Assembly: GCF_026151205.1 (NCBI RefSeq)
Contig: NC_087083.1
Location: 1,488,001 to 1,552,000 of the forward strand
Reading direction: 5' to 3'
Source of the DNA: Bolinopsis microptera
Taxonomy: Eukaryota > Ctenophora > Tentaculata > Lobata > Bolinopsidae
DNA length: 64,000 bases
Part shown: piece after piece, positions 48,183-64,000 of the stretch
Numbering within the stretch: position 1 is the first letter of the stretch
How the letters are laid out: each line of letters begins with the position of its first letter
Notes under the pieces: generated by a model
Database searches by the model: none
What the model was told of the DNA's origin: nothing
Seen by the model: the letters and a program-made list of their open reading frames with translations, nothing else
Program-made: the position numbers and the translations under genes

Positions 48183-49406
48183 ATGGATAACTATTTGGAA
48201 AATGGAAAACAAATATACGAAGAATATTGCTCAACATCTGAAAACCTGCCCACAATGCTTCCAAGAGCACCGGAGCAGACCTACATTGATGTATATCCAG
48301 ATGAAGATCAGCCCGGTCCCAGCTTTACAGATGACAGAAGACATCAATTAGACTACGAGACTGAAGTTAAGGTGTATAGGGCTTTGGAAGAGGTAGATGG
48401 AAACTTCATTGTTCTTCACAGTTTCAAATACACGCATCATCAATATCGTTTGTGTGCAGGTAAAAGTCATATCCGAAAAGGATGTTCTAATTGTAAAGGC
48501 AAAAATGCAGAAAATCAGGAGGGGGAAAGTGACTTTCTCATCATTTGTGCGGACAGTTTCATTATCATCGAGGTAAAGAACATGGATAATGTTGGAGAGG
48601 TTTTGGAATGTGAACCAGACTTCCACCTGTGTTCAATTGGCGAGGACTGGCAACCTCAGTGTAACAGAGACCAGCAGTTGAAAGCATTAATCGGAACGTT
48701 CCAGAAATCAGTCAAACAAAGAAACAAGATTGTGGAACTGATCAAGTGTATGGATAAGGATGCAAAAATTCTTCAGTTTACTGCCTATCCTAATTTTAGT
48801 AAACAGTTTAAAGATGAGTTTAAATTTAGTGAGATTACAGAACTCCCGTTAAGTGATGATGAACTGTCAACTATCATATTTGAAGAGGACCTTTGTCGCA
48901 ACGAACTTGATGCTGCTTGGTGGGCAGCAAATGTAACTCTGGCCAATTATTCATCTTCAGATTCCCATGAGAGAGTAAGGAACATTTTGTTAGCTATTTG
49001 GGCCACAGAGAGAAACACGTGTGATAAATCCAAGTGCAGTTTAGGACGATGTATTATGGATGTCAACAAACAACTTAAGGAAGGTCGCATTACTTTTGAG
49101 CCTAAAAAAGGTAAAAACCGTAATCAAAATCCCGCAGTTGTCAAAGCTCCCGATGTTATCAGAAACAATTCTAATGTGGAAAACCTAACAGTAGAACAAC
49201 ACAATGCTTTTGAGTCAAAAGAGAATTTGTTGTTGATTAACGGTCCCGCAGGGGCGGGCAAAACTGTCATATTGTGTGGTAAAATACTGCAACTGTTAGA
49301 GTCTGATAAGAACAATAAAGTTGTGGTATTTAAGTTTACTGGAGAAGGGAACAATTCACAGCATTATCAAAGTGCGTTAGATAACGCTAGTATAAAATCG
49401 AACTGA
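48183..49406 (+). CDS. NERD-like nuclease / SF1 helicase, N-terminal part (frameshifted)
   Basis: A 407-codon intronless frame. Residues about 58-132 carry a PD-(D/E)XK nuclease core of NERD type: DYETEVKVYRAL helix, Asp117 in GESDFLII, and Glu130-x-Lys132 in IIIEVKN. CxxC cysteines lie between them (101-104). Residues 335-343 (LTVEQHNAF) form a Q-motif, and 354-361 (GPAGAGKT) are Walker A of a superfamily 1 helicase. Family knowledge suggests ATP-dependent nucleic-acid translocation with a possible nuclease; substrate and cellular role are unknown. The frame ends at TGA 49,404 right after Walker A, but helicase sequence continues in another phase from 49,391, so a one-base-type shift near AGTATAAAATCG splits the gene. 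This may be a sequencing error or real decay. The ATG is the first in frame after a stop at 48,174, so the true start may be further upstream. Confidence 0.8.
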   Translation: MDNYLENGKQIYEEYCSTSENLPTMLPRAPEQTYIDVYPDEDQPGPSFTDDRRHQLDYETEVKVYRALEEVDGNFIVLHSFKYTHHQYRLCAGKSHIRKGCSNCKGKNAENQEGESDFLIICADSFIIIEVKNMDNVGEVLECEPDFHLCSIGEDWQPQCNRDQQLKALIGTFQKSVKQRNKIVELIKCMDKDAKILQFTAYPNFSKQFKDEFKFSEITELPLSDDELSTIIFEEDLCRNELDAAWWAANVTLANYSSSDSHERVRNILLAIWATERNTCDKSKCSLGRCIMDVNKQLKEGRITFEPKKGKNRNQNPAVVKAPDVIRNNSNVENLTVEQHNAFESKENLLLINGPAGAGKTVILCGKILQLLESDKNNKVVVFKFTGEGNNSQHYQSALDNASIKSN

Positions 49407-50350
49407 TAAGCGCAGATGAAGATGATCACACTCCAGAACAACTAGCTAATCTTATAACAAAGTGTTTGTGTAGTGTTATTATTGTCGAGATACCAGGTTA
49501 TGAAGATACCACATATTTAACAAATAGACTCAGTGTACTAAGTGGTTATAATTTGTTTGTTGATGATATACAGACAGTAATTAGATATAATACCACAGCT
49601 GAAAAGTGGACTTTATTGATTAACAAGTTAAAAGACTTATCAGCAGATAAGATTGTGTGGATAGCATATGATATTGTCCAGGTTTGGGCGCTAACAGACA
49701 CAGATCTCATTTCAATAGTAGCTAATGTAATTACTGATACATTAGCACCTCATCAGAGGACTACTTTATCTAGTAACTTGAGAAATACACATGATTTATC
49801 GAATATTTTATCTGTAATCAGAGATCAATTCGTTAAGTTATGTTCTCTTAAATCAGATATTTTAGATATTATTTTACCTTCACAATCACCAGGACACTTT
49901 ATACACGGTACATTGCCTGTTATACATGTTTTTAATAATCGTAATGTTGATAGTATTGTACGTGTTATTAATATTGATTTAGATAGATTGTGTGCTACAC
50001 ATGAATTAGAATATTCTGATATAGGTATAGTACATACTAATTACACTAGTAGTGTAGTACCACTAGTTGAGGACAGTGTTAATATGAGATGTAATGACAC
50101 TGCTAGTAAGATTGCAGTGTGTCACAGTAGGTATTGTGCCTCTAGTGAGTGGCCTGCTGTAATAGTACTGTGTAAAGTGTGGGGTAGTGAGGAGAAGGAC
50201 CTGACTACACTTTACTTAGCGTTATCAAGAGCACGTGTACACTGCTCTGTTGTTATATTCCCAGAGGAGGGTGAAACATTAGACGAATCACCTTACATGT
50301 TACATTTGTTACATAATCTGAGTAACTACGCTCGCATTATACGATATTAG
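49391..50350 (+). CDS. SF1 helicase, C-terminal part of the same gene
   Basis: The frame is open from 49,391 (after TAG 49,388) to the stop at 50,348. In its last 294 residues it has a Walker B-like FVDDIQ (31-36), a motif III-like WIAYDIVQ (65-72), a motif IV-like LSSNLRNTHDL (101-111), a motif V-like SSEWPAVIVL (227-236) and a motif VI YLALSRAR (250-257) with the arginine expected to contact ATP. Order and spacing fit the second half of the helicase begun at 48,183. There is no independent ATG at a sensible place, so it is a continuation, not a separate gene. Motif B has Asp-Asp rather than the usual Asp-Glu. Codons are strikingly AT-rich (TTA, GAT, AAT), more so than in the first half. AATAAA at 50,749 could serve as polyadenylation signal. 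Confidence 0.8.
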   Translation, partial: YKIELISADEDDHTPEQLANLITKCLCSVIIVEIPGYEDTTYLTNRLSVLSGYNLFVDDIQTVIRYNTTAEKWTLLINKLKDLSADKIVWIAYDIVQVWALTDTDLISIVANVITDTLAPHQRTTLSSNLRNTHDLSNILSVIRDQFVKLCSLKSDILDIILPSQSPGHFIHGTLPVIHVFNNRNVDSIVRVINIDLDRLCATHELEYSDIGIVHTNYTSSVVPLVEDSVNMRCNDTASKIAVCHSRYCASSEWPAVIVLCKVWGSEEKDLTTLYLALSRARVHCSVVIFPEEGETLDESPYMLHLLHNLSNYARIIRY

Positions 50351-52702: not shown

Positions 52703-53744
52703 CAAATATCATCTCTTTTTGATTAATGTCAGGGTACTTCATAAAGTCGAAATATAATGTATAAACTGATATCTTCATTAATAAGGAGGAAGTTTCAACG
52801 ATTTCGAAATTTTTCCTTTGAAAACATTTCCTTGTGTTTGGGTAAGCATATCGGTCGATCACTGACTGAATTTGCCACTTTATACTCATTCAAGTTGGCA
52901 TTAAATTTATATATAATGACATTGAACTGTCGTGGTAAAGCAGAATTTGTTCGAAATCACGAATGAGCAAAATTATCACCTTTCGCACGTGCAAACTATG
53001 AGCGGACGTTGCGTGCGCATCCAATATTGAATCGCCGTAAATTTTTGTGTGTTGGTGTTTTATATATAGTTTGATAAGCATGCAAAGTTTCAAAGTATTT
53101 CAAGAAGAACTGTAATCACAACGGCACACCAAAGTTTACAGAAAATGGTAAAAACAGCAATTTTCAGTGATTTTAGCAATTTTTAATCAATTTGGGCGTG
53201 TCCCCACGTGTGCATCTTTTCGATTTTTAACTTTAAAACTAGCCTAATGCACAATTTATACCTATAAAAAGCAGAACTGAGCTCCACAATCCAAGGGATA
53301 GCCCAACACCAGAGAATACTAAATCGCAAAATTGAAGTTTTTATAAAATAATTCTTCAAAAAAGCACTAACTTCAATGGCAAATATATTTATGAAGGAGC
53401 AAGGTAGGGAAACTTTCCGGTAGATTTTCAGAATACTTAAACAATTATCTAACTTCAATATGCCCTCAAATTTTGAATAAAATTACTCTTTAATGGCGTA
53501 AAATCGATTTTAAAAGTGATTACTTTGTAAAAAAACAGGTTTTTTAAATGGTTAACTTGATGACGTCATCAAGTGGTAATGATGACGTTAAATTACTTTT
53601 TCATATAATATAAACTAAAGTCTAAACAATTATCTTCAAGACCTGTGGTCCGAAATGGCTGTATCTTTTATACTTTAGAATCTACGGACACTTAAATACA
53701 GGCTATAATTCACTGGCAAAGCGTCTATCCCTGAATATATATAT
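52703..53744 (+). repeat. 1.0 kb repeat segment, copy 1
   Basis: This segment follows MITE-C in both copies and is about 90% alike at 54,984-56,010 (ATCATCTCTTTTTGATTA, GGAGGAAGTTTCAACGATTT, CAAAGCGTCTATCCCTGAAT). It contains two GATGACGTCATCAAG-type stretches near 53,560. It is duplicated together with MITE-C, so the unit that moved or was duplicated was about 1.5 kb. No coding frame is conserved. Confidence 0.75.
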
Positions 53745-53930
53745 GTATATATATATATCCATAGACACAGTGTTTCGTCCTATTAGGACTCATCAGTATG
53801 GCTCAAATCATCAAGGTTGGTTTTGCCGATGGCGGGTATTGAACCAGCAACCTTGCGATTACTGGCCCAACGCCGCGCCACTGGGCCACCAAGGCCTTAA
53901 TAATGAGGGAATTACATAGGTATATATATA
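53745..53930 (-). mobile_element. Short SINE-like unit: tRNA head plus hammerhead, AT tail
   Basis: On the minus strand a tRNA-like head (about 53,895 down to 53,825) has an A box TGGCCCAGTGGCGC and a B box GGTTCAATACC about 34 bases apart, as in a pol III type 2 promoter. It is followed by about 20 bases of linker, a 43-base hammerhead motif (53,759-53,801) and a TATATATA tail. Total length is about 180 bp. It sits in an AT microsatellite inside the larger inverted-repeat element; the sister repeat copy at 55,990-56,020 lacks it, so it is a separate insertion. SINE-like units with hammerheads are known from schistosome Sm-alpha repeats; family relation is unknown. Confidence 0.7.
53759..53801 (-). 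ncRNA. Hammerhead ribozyme motif (type I, short stem III)
   Basis: Minus-strand reading: stem I 5' strand CCATA, core CTGATGA, stem II GTCC with loop TAATA and GGAC, then GAAA, a stem III of 3 bp (ACA/TGT including the A15.1-U16.1 pair) with a 3-base loop, cleavage triplet GTC, and stem I 3' strand TATGG, which pairs perfectly with CCATA. Every conserved core position is present. Cleavage is expected after the C at + position 53,764. The very short stem III resembles metazoan hammerheads of schistosome satellites, Penelope-like elements and retrozymes, which often act as dimers or with tertiary contacts. Activity is inferred, not shown. Confidence 0.9.
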
Positions 53931-54200
53931 TGTATGTATATATCACGACAATCTGTCGTAAAACAGGGGTTCTAGAAAACCAATTTCCCGATGCTCCTGA
54001 AACTTAAAACTTTTTTTACAGTCGATTAGGTCAACGTCTAGACGCTCTGCAAAGTTTCAGATCTCTAACTCAATTTTAACATGGTTTTTAAGGCACCTGA
54101 ATATGGCGATTTCGGGTTTTTTACCGAATTTCGTATAACAGTGCTGGCGAGTATTTTATGCAAATTTTTTAAAAATCTTAACATAACTATTTTTTATTTC

Positions 54201-54487
54201 TGACATCTTTGACATCAAATTAGAATATTTTGAACTAAAAATAAATCTGCTGAACGACTTCCGATGAGTCTTAATGCCTGAAAAACTCCTGCCGGAGGCG
54301 TCGGCCTTCGGCCGCCGCCTCCGGCCGGAGTGCACGCTTCGCGTGCACGAAAGAGGCTTCCGACGTGTACCAAAGGGGGTGTAAAGGGGGTATAATAGTT
54401 AAGGGGATAGAATAGTAAAGGGGGTACATAGTATACCCCCAATAAAGACACCGCTCGTGCTTGCCAGCACTGTGATATCTGTATTTT
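54201..54487. repeat. GC-rich hairpin cluster
   Basis: An imperfect hairpin of about 15 bp arms at 54,292-54,325 (CCGGAGGCG..CGCCTCCGG) is followed by GTGCACGCTTCGCGTGCAC at 54,330-54,348. The second hairpin plus the following GAAAGAGG recurs inverted at 56,468-56,486. 54,375-54,440 carries AAAGGGGGTATAATAG-type repeats. No gene is seen. Confidence 0.5.
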
Positions 54488-54983
54488 ACCAAAACCCATA
54501 ATCATGGGTAGAGTGGACCGCTGCCAGTGTCTCTCTTTCCCAAACAAAAGGAAATGATATTAATTTGATTGACCGTTCTCAAATGCAAAATGATACCGAG
54601 AATGAAATCGGTCGCTCGCTTTTCCCATTCATTCACGGCTTACGAATTGTAATAAGTTTCGATTGATTACATCAATCAGATTCTGTAAAAATCTCTTTGG
54701 GTTGCGTTCGGGTCGATACCTAGTATTTCGGGGTAAGGGTGGTAGTTATTACTTATTGAATTAGCTGAAGTTTATTGAATCTTTATTGCCGAGTACAGCT
54801 GCCTTCGGGTAGTTCTTCTTAATCTATTACAATTGTAAATGAATGGGAAAAGCGAGCGACCGATTTCATTCTCGGTATCATTTTGCATTTGAGAACGGTC
54901 AATCAAATTAATATCATTTCCTTTTGTTTGGGAAAGAGAGACACTGGCAGCGGTCCACTCTACCCATGATTATGGGTTTTGGT
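54488..54983. mobile_element. MITE-C, copy 2
   Basis: A 496 bp copy with the same long inverted ends as 52,192-52,702 (ACCAAAACCCATAATCATGG and complement). Together with the next segment it forms a direct duplicate of 52,192-53,744. Confidence 0.85.
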
Positions 54984-58097: not shown

Positions 58098-58244
58098 CGT
58101 AGAAGATGAACTTCCGTAGAAGATGAACTTTCGTAGAAGATGAACTTTCGTAGAAGATGAACTTTCGTAGAAGACGAACTTTCGTAGAAGATGAACTTTC
58201 ATAGAAAATGAACTTTCGTAGAAGATGAACTTTCGTAGAAGATG
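58098..58244. repeat. 17 bp minisatellite next to the LINE 3' end
   Basis: Eight to nine copies of GTAGAAGATGAACTTTC. A minus-strand frame through it repeats KVHLLRKFIF because 17 is not a multiple of three. It is directly beyond the (GTCA)n tail of the LINE and could be part of that tail or the pre-existing target. Confidence 0.85.
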
Positions 58245-60290
58245 ACTGACTGACTTACTGACTTAAGTCGGCTTCTTGGTCCGAGCAACTACAATTCCTC
58301 GCCACACGTCGCGGTCCAGCATAACAGATCTTATCTCTTCAACACAGGAAAGGCTGGTGTCCTTCTTTAGCATGTCCAGAAACGTAAGGTGGGGCCTCCC
58401 CGGTCTCCTGTATCCATGCTGAGGGTCCCAGAACAGAAGTTGGTTTGCCAGAAGGTCGTCATGCCTGGCTACATGTCCAGCCAGTCTCATTCTTCTGGAG
58501 GCTATCATCGCTGATGGCTTGGGGATGTTGCCGTATAAATCACTGTTGTTGATGATTTGTGGCCACCGTATGTTCAAGGCCATCCGGAGCATTCTAGTGT
58601 AGCATCCATTGATCCGCTTAGTCATGGATTGGCTTATCGTCCAAGCTTCAGAGCCGTACAGGAGTATGGGCTCAACCGTTGCTCGAAAGACACGGATCTT
58701 TAAGTCCCTGCGCATTCCAGACTTCCAGGTTGTCTTTAACTGATGACAGGCCCCCCATGCCTTTGCTTTCCTAACATCAAAGTCCTTCTCCGCACTCATT
58801 ATTCTGCTTCCAAGGTAGACAAAGTCATCTACTTGCTCTATCTCCTGCCCACTTGCTGCTTTAATGACGGTAGAGTCAGACTCAGAGAGATTGACTCTGA
58901 TGTACTTCGTCTTACTCTCGTTGAGGTGAAGTCCAACGGAGTTAGCAGCCAGCTCCACACTGAGGAGAAGATCTTGCGCTTGCTCTGCGGTGTCTGTTGT
59001 CAGTGCAAGATCGTCAGCAAAGTCGACATCTGTCATCTTAACTGCTGGGTATCTCCTGCTTCTTCTGGGGTTGACAGTGAAGCCCAGATCTTTGCCTCTA
59101 AGTGCTGTTGTCATCACATAGTCAATGACAATCACGAAGAGGTAGGGCGCCAGTGTATCTCCCTGCATAACTCCAGCAAGTATAAGGAAAGCTTCAGTCA
59201 GACCATCCTCCGTGATGACTCGTGCCATGGTGTCCTTGTACATAGCATCTATCAGCCTAACAATGGGCTCTGGTATCCCATATGCCAGGAGTATCTTCAT
59301 CAATATACCCCTATGAATGCTATCAAAGGCCTTCTTAAAATCGATGAACAAGAGAAGGGCGGTCAGGTTTTTGTCTCTAGCCCCCTCCAAGATCCTCCTT
59401 AGACACAGAATGTGGCTGGTGGTACTGCGTCCCTCCCGAAATCCGTTTTGGTTGATCCTCAGGATTTTCTCCATCGCTGGTTTGATTCTGTTAAGGATCA
59501 TACGATTCAGGGTCTTACTAACAATGGACGTAAGAGCGATTCCTCTGTAGTTATCCACTTTAGTTAGATTTCCTTTCTTTGGCACAGGCACGATGTTGAG
59601 TTGCCGCCATTGATCAGGGATTTTTCCATCAACCAGAGCGCTGTTACAGAACTCTAGAATCAGGTCGTCCATGTCCACTCTTTTGAGAATCTCTGGAGCT
59701 ATGCCATCATCACCATAGGCCTTACCCTCCTTGATCTGCTTCCTCGCCTCCGCTAACTCCTCCCTGCAAAACAGACCAGTCTCTATATAATCCTGCTGGG
59801 GGTGGATGGTTTGGATAACTATTTCCTGGTCAGGTACAGATGGTGGTTGACCCAGGAGCTTAGTGAAGTGGTCTTTCCAGCTCTTCAATCTCCCCTCTGC
59901 ACTACCTCCATCAACCAGGCTGCATGGCTTGCTTTTCCTGCCATTTATGTCATTAATAAGGTCCCAACTTTCCTTATTCTTGCACCTGTCAGCAGCATCC
60001 TCAGCCCGCCTGATCCGAGAAACAAGAGTCTCCTCCTCAACCTCTTTGTAGCTCACTGCAAGTGCATCCTTACACTCCTTAACTACCTCTCTACTCTCCT
60101 CTGAAGGATTCTCATGATATGCGTCTTTGGCCTGAAACAGAGTTCTCCTCCTCTCCGATACCCTAGGATCTTGGGAGGGGTTGTTACGTTGTCTTCTTGG
60201 GATGGGCTTAAGCAACTTATGATTGGTTGCTTTCACGGCATCCATAAGCTTTCCGTACTGAATCGTGGAAGATGAAGTTTCCAATAATAA
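58245..60290 (-). mobile_element. 5'-truncated LINE (non-LTR retrotransposon)
   Basis: Contains an intact reverse transcriptase frame. The stop codon is followed by only about 20 bases, GTCAGTAAGTCAGTCAGTCA, which look like a short tandem 3' tail. No endonuclease-encoding sequence is visible beyond about 60,290, so the copy is 5'-truncated, the usual result of incomplete target-primed reverse transcription. The uninterrupted frame implies a recent insertion. No clear target duplication was identified. Confidence 0.85.
58263..60284 (-). CDS. LINE ORF2 reverse transcriptase (lacks endonuclease)
   Basis: 673 residues. RT motifs in order: GKAYGDDGIAPEIL (188-201), NYRGIALTSI (245-254), NQNGFREGRST (278-288), FIDFKKAFDSIHR (313-325, catalytic Asp), AGVMQGDTLAPYLF (370-383) and FADD (422-425, catalytic pair). 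They are followed by a thumb with VDDFVYLGSRI and a C-terminal region with RLAGHVARHDD and YRRPGRP. This is the layout of an APE-type non-LTR element; the clade is not assigned. The N-terminal about 140 residues are charged linker, and the APE endonuclease expected upstream is missing. The protein would copy its own RNA at a nicked target but cannot nick DNA itself. The Met start is simply the first in frame of the truncated copy. Confidence 0.92.
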   Translation of the reverse strand: METSSSTIQYGKLMDAVKATNHKLLKPIPRRQRNNPSQDPRVSERRRTLFQAKDAYHENPSEESREVVKECKDALAVSYKEVEEETLVSRIRRAEDAADRCKNKESWDLINDINGRKSKPCSLVDGGSAEGRLKSWKDHFTKLLGQPPSVPDQEIVIQTIHPQQDYIETGLFCREELAEARKQIKEGKAYGDDGIAPEILKRVDMDDLILEFCNSALVDGKIPDQWRQLNIVPVPKKGNLTKVDNYRGIALTSIVSKTLNRMILNRIKPAMEKILRINQNGFREGRSTTSHILCLRRILEGARDKNLTALLLFIDFKKAFDSIHRGILMKILLAYGIPEPIVRLIDAMYKDTMARVITEDGLTEAFLILAGVMQGDTLAPYLFVIVIDYVMTTALRGKDLGFTVNPRRSRRYPAVKMTDVDFADDLALTTDTAEQAQDLLLSVELAANSVGLHLNESKTKYIRVNLSESDSTVIKAASGQEIEQVDDFVYLGSRIMSAEKDFDVRKAKAWGACHQLKTTWKSGMRRDLKIRVFRATVEPILLYGSEAWTISQSMTKRINGCYTRMLRMALNIRWPQIINNSDLYGNIPKPSAMIASRRMRLAGHVARHDDLLANQLLFWDPQHGYRRPGRPHLTFLDMLKKDTSLSCVEEIRSVMLDRDVWRGIVVARTKKPT

Positions 60291-61954: not shown

Positions 61955-64000
61955 GAGGAGGAGGAGGACTGAGGAGGAGGAGGAGGAGGAGGAGGAGGAG
62001 GAGGAGGAGGAGGAGGAGGAGGAGGAGGACTGAGGAGGAGGAGGAGGAGGAGGAGGAGGAGGAGGAGGAGGAGGAGGAGGACTGAGGAGGAAGAGGAGGA
62101 GGAGGAGGAGGAGGAGGAGGAGGACTGAGGAGGACTGAGAGGAGGAGACTGAGGAGGAGGAAGACTGAGGAGGAGGAAGACTGCAAGGAGGACTGAGGAG
62201 GAGGAGAACTGAGGAGGAGGAGGAGGAGGACTGAGAAGGAGGAGGACTGAGGAGGAGGAAGCATCTAAATTTTATTTTCATAATAGGGGGAGGACTGAGG
62301 GAAAGGAGGAGGACTGAGGAGGAGGAGGACTGAGGAGGACTGAGGAGGAGGATGACTGAGGAGGAGGAAGACTGAGGAGGAGGAGGACTGAGAAGGAGGA
62401 GGACTGAGGAGGAGGAGGTGGAGGAGGAGGAGGAGGAGGAGGAGGACTGAGGAGGATTGAGGAGGAGGAAGACTGAGGAGGAGGATGAAGACTGAGGAGG
62501 ATGAAGACTGATGAGGATGAGGAGAAGGAGGAGGAGGAGGACTGAGGAGGACTGAGGAGGACTGAGGAAGAGGAGGAGGACTGAGGAAGAGGAGGAGGAC
62601 TGAGGAGGTCAGGACTGAGGAGCAAGAGGAGGACTGAGGAGGAGGAGGAGGACTGAGGAGGACCGAGGATGAGGAGGAGGAGTACTGATGAGGAGGAGGA
62701 GGAAGAGAGGATGAGGAGGAGGAAGAGAGGAGGAGGAGGAGGAGGAGGAGGAGGAGGAGGAGGAGGAGAAGGAGGAGGAGGAGGAGGAAAACTGAGGAGG
62801 ACTGAGGAGGACTGAGGACTGAGGAGGAAAAGGATGACTGAGGAGGAGGAGGAGGAGGAGGACTGAGGAGGAGGACTGAAGAGGAGGAGGACTGAGGAGG
62901 AGGAGGACTGAGGAGGAGGAAGACTGAGGAGGAGGAAAACTGAGGAGGACTGAGGACTGAGGAGGAGGAAGACTGAGGAGGAGGAAGACTGAGGAGGAGG
63001 AGGAGGAAGACTGAGGAGGAGGTGGACTGAGGAGGAGGAGGACTGAGGAGGACTGAAGAGGAGGAGGACTGAGGAGGACTGAGGAGGAGGGAGACTGAGG
63101 AGGAGGAAGACTGAGGAGGAGAAAGACTGAGGAGGACTGAGGAGGAGGAGAACTGAGGAGGAGGAGGAGGACTGAGAAGGAGGAGGACTGAGGAGGAGGA
63201 AGCATCTAAATTTTATTTTCATAATAGGGGGAGGACTGAGGGAAAGGAGGAGGACTGATGAGGACTGAGGAGGAGGATGACTGAGGAGGAGGAAGACTGA
63301 GGAGGAGGAGGACTGAGAAGGAGAAGGACTGAGAAGGAGGAGGTGGAGGAGGAGGAGGAGGAGGAGGAGGACTGAGGAGGATTGAGGAGGAGGAAGACTG
63401 AGTAGGAGGAGGAAGACTGAGGAGGATAAGGACTGATGAGTATGAGGAGGAGGAGGACTGAGGAGGACTGAGGAGGACTGAGGAAGAGGAGGAGGACTGA
63501 GGAGGTCAGGACTGAGGAGCAAGAGGAGGACTGAGGAGGAGGAGGAGGACTGAGGAGGACTGAGGAGGAGGAGGATGAGGACTGATGAGGAGGAGGAGGA
63601 AGAGAGGATGAGGAGGAGGAAGAGAGGAGGAGGAGGAGGAAGAGAGGATGAGGAGGAGGAAGAGAAGAGGAGGAGGAGGAGGAGGAGGAGGAGGAGGAGG
63701 AGGAGGAGGAGGAGGAGGAGGAGGAGGAGGAGGAGGAGGACTGACAAGGACTGAGGAGGAAAAGGATGACTGAGGAGGAGGAGGAGGAGGACTGATGAGG
63801 AGGACTGAAGAGGAGGAGGACTGAGGAGGAGGAGGACTGAGGAGGAGGAAGACTGAGGAGGAAGAAAACTGAGGAGGACTGAGGAGGACTGAGGACTGAG
63901 GAGGAGGAAGACTGAGGAGGAGGAGGAGGAGGAGGACTGAGGATGAGGAGGACTGAGGAGGAGGAGGACTGAGGAGGACTGAAGAGGAGGAGGACTGAGG
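61955..64000 (+). repeat. Purine-rich GGA/GGACTGA minisatellite, runs off the window
   Basis: Made of (GGA)n and GGAGGACTGAGGA blocks, with very few pyrimidines on the + strand. A marker segment AAGCATCTAAATTTTATTTT followed by CATAATAGGGGGAGGACTGA occurs at about 62,259 and 63,199. The blocks to its right (62,300-62,870 and 63,245-63,800) correspond in order, giving a higher-order period of about 945 bp. Long minus-strand frames of Ser, Leu and Pro are artefacts of the repeat. Such (GGA)n tracts can form G-quadruplex or triplex structures. The array continues beyond 64,000. Confidence 0.9.

What the first reader, a model, noticed from the sequence alone, without database searches (positions are those of the whole stretch)
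53745..53930. SINE-like unit combining a tRNA-type pol III promoter with a complete hammerhead ribozyme
On the minus strand a tRNA-like head with A and B boxes is followed within about 25 bases by a hammerhead with all core bases, perfect stems I and II, and a GTC cleavage site placed just before the AT tail. A pol III transcript would therefore cut itself near its own 3' end. Hammerheads are established in schistosome Sm-alpha, Penelope-like elements and retrozymes. A tRNA-headed unit with the ribozyme at its 3' border would be a compact, possibly new, self-processing retroelement.
Basis: partly seen in the sequence, partly recalled or inferred. Interest (0 to 1): 0.8.

Follow-up and report, generated by a model that had tools for sequence, protein, structure and literature searches.

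The report
tRNA-headed hammerhead ribozyme retroelement (retrozyme)
A short repeated DNA element carries a tRNA-like promoter and a self-cutting RNA, and its copies look as if reverse transcriptase ran part of the way, once, or several times around its RNA and pasted the result into TATATA stretches, which are also used by a retrotransposon family of the same genome that may be its helper.

Summary
Window 53757-53803(-) is a type I hammerhead (Rfam RF00163, 35.9 bits, over cut-off) with fitting A and B boxes upstream. The pair is a family: all 40 scored genome matches of the head lie in insertions of it. The reading needs changing. The unit is a 277-bp monomer (linker, tRNA-like head, hammerhead), dispersed and in head-to-tail arrays; the window copy is a 5'-truncated 0.62 of it. 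In 64 of 68 examined insertions the 3' end is fixed just past the ribozyme cut (GTC^TATGG). 5' ends are ragged, lengths run from 0.08 to 6.56 monomers, flanks are TA-rich, and nine insertions show readable 12-16 bp duplications. This fits reverse transcription started inside an RNA uncut at that site (a circle, or an uncut multimer), i.e. an animal retrozyme. The genome also holds at least 147 GIY-YIG matches, about 40 in open frames over 700 aa (Penelope-like type). Their readable 3' ends abut (TA)n too, and 9 of 67 retrozyme insertions lie within 25 bp of such sequence: a candidate helper. New: an internal tRNA-type promoter candidate and a genomic pointer to the helper. Cleavage, transcription, circles and helper use are untested; tRNA likeness is weak (15.8 bits).

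The parts
53751..53922 (-). retrozyme insertion, 0.62 monomer (phases 119 to 277, then 1 to 13; phases 6-13 cannot be told from target TA)
   Evidence: blastn to the monomer multimer, 97.7%; monomer match 119-277
53757..53803 (-). type I hammerhead ribozyme
   Evidence: Rfam RF00163 35.9 bits, over gathering score; alignment
53763..53764 (-). predicted self-cleavage point, after C of GTC (C 53764, T 53763)
   Evidence: sequence and hammerhead alignment; cleavage not tested
53759..53763 (-). TATGG: 3' strand of stem I and last letters copied from RNA; element 3' end
   Evidence: in nine other copies a readable target duplication starts directly after TATGG
53797..53801 (-). CCATA: 5' strand of stem I
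   Evidence: sequence, pairing
53824..53895 (-). tRNA-like head
   Evidence: Rfam RF00005 full length 1-71 but only 15.8 bits, below gathering score 29
53878..53888 (-). A box TGGCCCAGTGG
   Evidence: fits TRGYNNARNNG (consensus recalled); conforms in 26 of 30 head-bearing insertions, one unit each
53835..53845 (-). B box GGTTCAATACC
   Evidence: fits GGWTCRANNCC (consensus recalled); conforms in 24 of 30
53923..53943 (.). TA-rich target, 5' side of the insertion
   Evidence: sequence; empty host-repeat sites
53735..53758 (.). TA-rich target, 3' side of the insertion (its start merges with phases 6-13)
   Evidence: sequence; empty host-repeat sites
53100..53734 (.). host repeat, one side of the insertion
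   Evidence: 40 near-complete matches in the genome, this one included
53944..54600 (.). host repeat, other side of the insertion
   Evidence: repeated in the genome, many copies lacking the first 120 or so letters of the query; joined to the other side across a TA stretch in empty copies

Best explanation
It is a non-autonomous retroelement of the animal retrozyme kind with a tRNA-type head. Proposed cycle: (1) inferred: pol III starts at the internal A/B boxes; in an array the transcript runs through several 277-nt units. (2) Inferred: each hammerhead cuts after GUC, releasing unit-length RNA that a cellular ligase closes to a circle; some RNA stays uncut. (3) Read from the junctions: cDNA synthesis begins at a fixed inner point, 5-7 nt past the (uncut or religated) ribozyme site, at UAUGG|AUAUAU, next to a TA-rich target. 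(4) Read from the junctions: it proceeds a variable distance, often past one full lap, leaving fixed 3' ends, ragged 5' ends and arrays; target duplications, where readable, are 12-16 bp. (5) Inferred: the machinery is that of the genome's GIY-YIG Penelope-like elements, whose own insertions also end at (TA)n. The window copy is one 5'-truncated insertion into the TA stretch of another repeat and lacks the linker.
For: 3' end at phase 7-16 in 64 of 67 insertions, 64 of 68 with a later exception. Free of ribozyme-based finding: 18 of 20 insertions hit by the head-only query and 19 of 22 hit by the linker-only query end there (searches set against 45, 83). 5' phases 3-265, 19 of 59 longer than one lap. 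(TA)3 within 25 nt of the 5' side in 40 of 59, of the 3' side in 42 of 59, against 3.15% of 20,000 control 25-mers from the same loci. Duplications directly after TATGG, e.g. ATATGTATATATGTAT (C2:15529235), ATATATTATATCTTT (C4:5831277), ATTTATCTATATC (C3:383001). Ten empty host-repeat sites. Hammerhead least diverged: 21 of 1167 letters against 34 of 480 (spacer), 238 of 2340 (head), 73 of 1928 (linker) in 30 insertions; core intact in 84 of 94 units. Penelope-like: 147 GIY-YIG matches, 150 of 524 candidates scored. Their 3' ends run straight into TATATATA in 13 of 15 readable copies; in the seven copies from loci fetched for GIY-YIG alone it is 6 of 7, the seventh reading TGTATATATATA. 9 of 67 retrozyme insertions lie within 25 bp of Penelope-like sequence. 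Published: a lizard Penelope-like enzyme starts reverse transcription inside the RNA, prefers AT-rich DNA and uses unprocessed RNA in vitro (PMC11167929, abstract and passages).
Against: No transcription, cleavage, circle or helper assay. Circle and uncut linear multimer give the same junctions. Four insertions do not end at the fixed site (C3:3634551 phase 192, C9:575487 phase 138, C13:7897535 phase 2, C5:10091331 about phase 188). A readable duplication was kept for only nine of 59 insertions; the script printed 19 rows, the other ten too distant or too TA-like to count. The A box is not more conserved than its surroundings (31 of 330 changed letters, 9.4%, against 10.2% in the whole head), and absence of TTTT is uninformative (seen in 57-68% of shuffles). 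tRNA likeness is weak. The Penelope-like RT pieces match no Pfam or NCBIfam model and were named by GIY-YIG plus motifs read by eye. Eight of the 15 Penelope-like 3' ends come from loci fetched because of a retrozyme. A control with another retrotransposon's 3' ends was not obtained, so general crowding of repeats at (TA)n is not excluded.
Confidence: 0.66

Rival explanations
1. A plain tRNA SINE with a (TA)n tail in which the hammerhead-like stretch is incidental: pol III makes a linear RNA and a LINE inserts it.
For: A/B boxes, dispersed single copies, TA tail; 5 of 59 insertions start at phases 137-140, 13-16 nt before the A box, where a pol III start is expected (but the sequence there, ATTATTAA, also offers TA microhomology).
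Against: The other 54 of 59 5' ends lie elsewhere, and 19 of 59 insertions exceed a monomer and so carry the linker upstream of a head; the hammerhead is the least changed part and over Rfam's cut-off in 67 genome hits.
Confidence: 0.12
2. Satellite DNA spread at the DNA level (unequal crossing-over, circular DNA) rather than by reverse transcription.
For: Arrays of 277-bp units up to 6.56 copies; one array mixes two unit variants.
Against: Fixed 3' junction with ragged 5' junction, readable target duplications, and 40 of 59 insertions shorter than a unit.
Confidence: 0.08
3. Same retrozyme biology, but the helper is another retrotransposon (a LINE such as the RT gene in this window, or several helpers) and Penelope-like copies merely share the TA niche.
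For: The window holds an RVT_1 gene 4.3 kb away; my control on its 3' ends was not obtained; by eye, retrozyme and Penelope-like 3' ends share no sequence beyond TA.
Against: Same junction form in Penelope-like copies and close neighbourhood; four of the 147 listed GIY-YIG matches lie within 1.5 kb of a retrozyme insertion where about 0.1 is expected if independent (my arithmetic).
Confidence: 0.25
4. A finer alternative within the best explanation: the inserted template is an uncut linear multimer rather than a circle; the ribozyme acts in another step.
For: The copied part crosses the cut site in 64 of 68 insertions; in vitro, unprocessed RNA was the main substrate of a Penelope-like enzyme (PMC11167929, passages).
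Against: Near whole-lap insertions (1.03, 1.03, 1.04, 2.01 laps) are as expected from a circle, though TA microhomology explains them too; other animal retrozymes accumulate as circles (PMC7229834, parts 2-3 read).
Confidence: 0.4

Closest known systems
Animal (non-LTR) retrozymes with type I hammerheads (coral, mussel, axolotl; PMC7229834)
   Same: Type I hammerhead, 150-450 bp repeats in tandem, low GC, duplications longer than 4 bp, self-paired RNA predicted.
   Different: An internal tRNA-type A/B-box head, whereas the review PMC7761336 (its section 7) says retrozymes seem to harbour no promoters; a fixed 3' junction at TA-rich DNA; circles not shown here.
Schistosome Sm-alpha and Sj-alpha repeats (SINE-like, hammerhead-bearing)
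   Same: Hammerhead in a SINE-like repeat (PMC8490949 passages); a pol III promoter in Sm-alpha is recalled, not read here.
   Different: Not compared: no Sm-alpha sequence was fetched, so monomer, head and junctions are not set side by side.
Penelope-like elements with GIY-YIG endonuclease
   Same: Copies in this genome end at (TA)n and several are 5'-truncated at TA; elsewhere internal start of reverse transcription, tandem copies, inverted pieces at junctions (PMC11167929, PMC3846280, passages).
   Different: The 277-bp unit is far too short for RT and endonuclease; no hammerhead was found in the six of eight Penelope-like loci scanned.
tRNA-derived SINEs
   Same: A and B boxes, dispersed, simple-repeat tail.
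   Different: Ragged 5' ends, tandem multi-lap copies, hammerhead at the 3' end.

Membership tests
animal non-LTR retrozyme | canonical type I hammerhead | tested here: met
   RF00163 35.9 bits in the window; 67 of 69 genome hits over cut-off
animal non-LTR retrozyme | small tandem repeats of about 150-450 bp | tested here: met
   277-bp monomer, arrays up to 6.56 laps; 19 of 59 insertions over one lap
animal non-LTR retrozyme | GC below 50% | tested here: met
   45.1 and 46.9% for two monomer versions
animal non-LTR retrozyme | target duplications longer than 4 bp, when present | tested here: met
   12-16 bp in nine of 59 insertions; ambiguous in TA-rich flanks, including the window copy
animal non-LTR retrozyme | highly self-paired RNA | tested here: met
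   circular MFE -81.2 against -66.6 (sd 5.2) in 200 shuffles, z -2.8
animal non-LTR retrozyme | expressed as linear and circular RNA | not testable with these tools
   no RNA data
tRNA-derived SINE | A and B boxes | tested here: met
   both boxes conform in 21 of 30 head-bearing insertions
tRNA-derived SINE | recognisable tRNA homology | tested here: inconclusive
   RF00005 15.8 bits, below cut-off 29; none at E<=1 in nine other loci
tRNA-derived SINE | 5' end at the pol III start | tested here: not met
   5' phases 3-265; 5 of 59 at phases 137-140
Penelope-like element | RT and GIY-YIG coding | tested here: not met
   Penelope-like protein pieces do not match the window; the 277-bp unit is too short
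Sm-alpha | sequence homology to Sm-alpha | not tested
   no Sm-alpha sequence was fetched

The most novel reading that the evidence does not exclude
A pol III-transcribed, tRNA-headed retrozyme whose self-made RNA circle is the direct template of a Penelope-like reverse transcriptase that nicks (TA)n DNA and copies round the circle for up to several laps: a defined promoter, helper, target and start point for one animal retrozyme.
Probability: 0.35. Interest if true: 0.82.

Novelty: new variant of a known kind. Interest (0 to 1): 0.6.

Why it matters
A 2020 review states that retrozymes seem to harbour no promoters and that no conserved motif shows which autonomous element moves the animal ones (PMC7761336, its section 7); its section 6 names Penelope-like elements as likely candidates. 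This family offers a candidate internal promoter and junction evidence (a fixed start point at TA-rich DNA, like that of GIY-YIG elements of the same genome), so both can be tested directly. If the host is a comb jelly, as 13 large contigs of 15-26 Mb suggest but do not prove, it would also place retrozymes in that lineage; one full-text search of the held library for 'ctenophor' plus 'hammerhead ribozyme' found one paper, in which the one ribozyme mention is a reference title.

Tried and rejected
Three insertions share a 5' flank ending TTTCCTGCGGTTA and a broken core (C5:12574057, C13:6380862, C11:18623078); considered as a possible helper sharing the 3' tail and rejected: few copies, and no frame over 143 aa in the two upstream pieces listed. 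Absence of TTTT in the sense strand as a sign of pol III selection: shuffles lack it in 57-68% of cases, rejected. Covariation of hammerhead stems: too little variation, not pursued. PDB sequence search with an RT piece: no match at E<=1. Control of (TA)n junctions with the window's RT gene: 3' end not reached and loci not cut out, unresolved. Rows dropped before counts: 68 alignments became 67 insertions (one array split by another element) and then 59, by leaving out eight copies sharing a flank; one of these, C10:2278861, shares only its 5' flank and is counted among the 9 of 67 neighbours. The later C5:10091331 is in the 64 of 68 and the 19 of 22 only. Of 19 printed duplication rows nine were kept. 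Many copies were found with ribozyme-bearing queries, which favours intact ribozymes and 3' ends past the cut; hence the separate head-only and linker-only counts. The flank used to recognise Penelope-like 3' ends was first noticed beside retrozymes and then found in six of the eight GIY-YIG loci L114-L121.

Full report
What is in the window. On the minus strand at 53757-53803 lies a type I hammerhead over Rfam's curated cut-off (35.9 bits). Upstream lie A and B boxes fitting the recalled pol III consensus (53888-53878 and 53845-53835). The head aligns end to end with the tRNA model but weakly (15.8 bits against a cut-off of 29), and nine further loci gave no tRNA match at E<=1. So 'tRNA-like head with pol III boxes' is fair; 'tRNA-derived' is probable, not shown.

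The real unit. Searching the genome that holds the window (264.65 Mb, 232 contigs) gave 88 matches, many in head-to-tail arrays (a lower bound). The arrays show a 277-bp monomer: a 105-bp linker missing from the window copy, the head, and the hammerhead. I number it from the first base after the predicted cut. The window copy spans phases 119 to 277 and on into the TA stretch, 0.62 of a monomer.

Head and ribozyme belong together. A 78-nt head query found 40 scored matches (of 56 candidates); all 40 fall in 20 family insertions. A linker query gave 40 scored matches (of 51 candidates); one, C5:10091331, was a new insertion that stops inside the head and lacks the ribozyme. In 30 head-bearing insertions, one unit each, the hammerhead is the least changed part: 21 of 1167 letters against 34 of 480 in the adjoining spacer (Fisher P 4e-7), 238 of 2340 in the head and 73 of 1928 in the linker. 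The core is intact in 84 of 94 units. Some of these copies were found through ribozyme-bearing queries, so part of the contrast may be bias. The A box itself is not specially conserved (31 of 330).

Junctions. Of 67 insertions examined, 64 end at phase 7-16, TATGGAT in nearly all, followed by TA-rich DNA; with C5:10091331 it is 64 of 68. The other exceptions are C3:3634551 (phase 192), C9:575487 (138) and C13:7897535 (2). Among insertions hit by the head-only query the figure is 18 of 20, by the linker-only query 19 of 22 (searches set against 45, 83), so it is not made by ribozyme-based finding. The 5' ends run from phase 3 to 265 in 59 insertions without shared flanks; lengths run from 0.08 to 6.56 monomers and 19 of 59 exceed one. 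(TA)3 lies within 25 nt on the 5' side in 40 of 59, on the 3' side in 42 of 59 and on both in 29 of 59; in control 25-mers from the same loci it is 3.15%. Where the TA stretch is imperfect, target duplications of 12-16 bp can be read in nine insertions, starting right after TATGG: C1:2501160, C2:15529235, C4:5831277, C10:12290267, C9:14938319, C13:674506, C3:383001, and, with extra partly inverted TA-rich letters before the 5' end, C11:9594695 and C6:1742023. The copied part therefore ends at TATGG, the 3' strand of ribozyme stem I. The window copy sits in the TA stretch of another abundant repeat, of which I found ten empty copies and eight other copies holding a retrozyme (two of them a duplicated pair), in both orientations.

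What this means. A fixed 3' end, ragged 5' ends and target duplications are marks of target-primed reverse transcription. A fixed start inside the unit, beyond the ribozyme cut, means the template was not cut there: a religated circle or an uncut multimer. More than one lap fits either. This is the general scheme proposed for retrozymes (PMC7761336, its sections 6-7 read; PMC7229834, parts 2-3 and passages). The folded circle is more stable than shuffles (z -2.8), in line with the highly paired RNAs reported there.

Who moves it. The genome has at least 147 GIY-YIG matches (150 of 524 candidates scored), about 40 of them in open frames over 700 aa. Pieces I could read carry GIY-YIG (2e-7; 5e-8) and, by eye and recall, RT motifs of Penelope type, but no Pfam or NCBIfam RT model matches. 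In two related groups of these elements 13 of 15 readable 3' ends run directly into TATATATA; in loci fetched for GIY-YIG alone it is 6 of 7, the seventh reading TGTATATATATA. Several 5' truncations also abut TA. Nine of 67 retrozyme insertions lie within 25 bp of such sequence: C6:11265083, C10:2278861, C12:3413010, C9:15567131 (without TA between), C4:8051337, C6:18073485 and its duplicate C6:18075889, C11:14606841, C11:18623078. In two of them (C6:11265083, C10:2278861) the retrozyme ends directly before a 5'-truncated Penelope-like copy in the same orientation, as template switching or a second insertion would leave it. A lizard Penelope-like enzyme starts reverse transcription inside its RNA, prefers AT-rich DNA and uses RNA not cut by its hammerhead (PMC11167929, abstract and passages); [quoted passage not shown] All this points to a Penelope-like helper but does not prove it; my control with another retrotransposon was not obtained. 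No hammerhead was found in the six of eight Penelope-like loci scanned.

Promoter. The paired boxes are unlikely by chance (27 of 20,000 shuffles) and both conform in 21 of 30 insertions. Five of 59 insertions start at phases 137-140, 13-16 nt before the A box (P 0.0016 against a uniform spread, 0.013 against the local density, window chosen after the fact), which could be the pol III start or TA microhomology. A published review says retrozymes seem to harbour no promoters, so this is the most distinctive part of the unit, and it is untested.

Place among known things. It works like, and by the features tested is, an animal retrozyme; it departs by its head. Sm-alpha of schistosomes is the nearest combination of SINE features and hammerhead (passages; its pol III promoter is recalled).

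Noticed in passing
window 53100-54600: An abundant repeat (40 near-complete scored copies of one side; 40 scored places of the other, many lacking about 120 letters) with an inner TA stretch that takes up retrozymes in either orientation; its own nature was not determined.
   Followed up: partly
C1:12166206-12169172 (within L009): A retrozyme array is split by about 3 kb of DNA with inverted ends (TAGTACAGACAGATCCGTC...) and a repeated TGT, as a DNA transposon would leave it.
   Followed up: no
window 58263-60284 (-): Reverse transcriptase gene (Pfam RVT_1, 112.7 bits), followed by a tandem AGTTCATCTTCTACGAA repeat at about 58110-58240.
   Followed up: partly
window 48183-49406 (+): Frame with a NERD domain and the start of a UvrD-type helicase (Pfam), continued perhaps by 49466-50350, which matched no Pfam family.
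   Followed up: no
L019 1521-3036 (-): One array mixes two head variants in blocks (A A A B B A, read), suggesting template switching or later recombination.
   Followed up: no
C6:1742023 and C11:9594695, 5' junctions: Between target duplication and element lie letters that are a partly inverted copy of adjoining target DNA, a snap-back like that described at Penelope junctions; TA-rich sequence makes such matches easy by chance.
   Followed up: partly
L093, L094, L095: A low-copy repeat fused to a broken hammerhead (TTGATCA in place of CTGATGA); in L094 and L095 a minisatellite of GGCAGGTCC type lies beside it.
   Followed up: yes
window 62278-63747 (-): Long low-complexity frame rich in Leu, Ser and Pro, probably a microsatellite and not a gene.
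   Followed up: no
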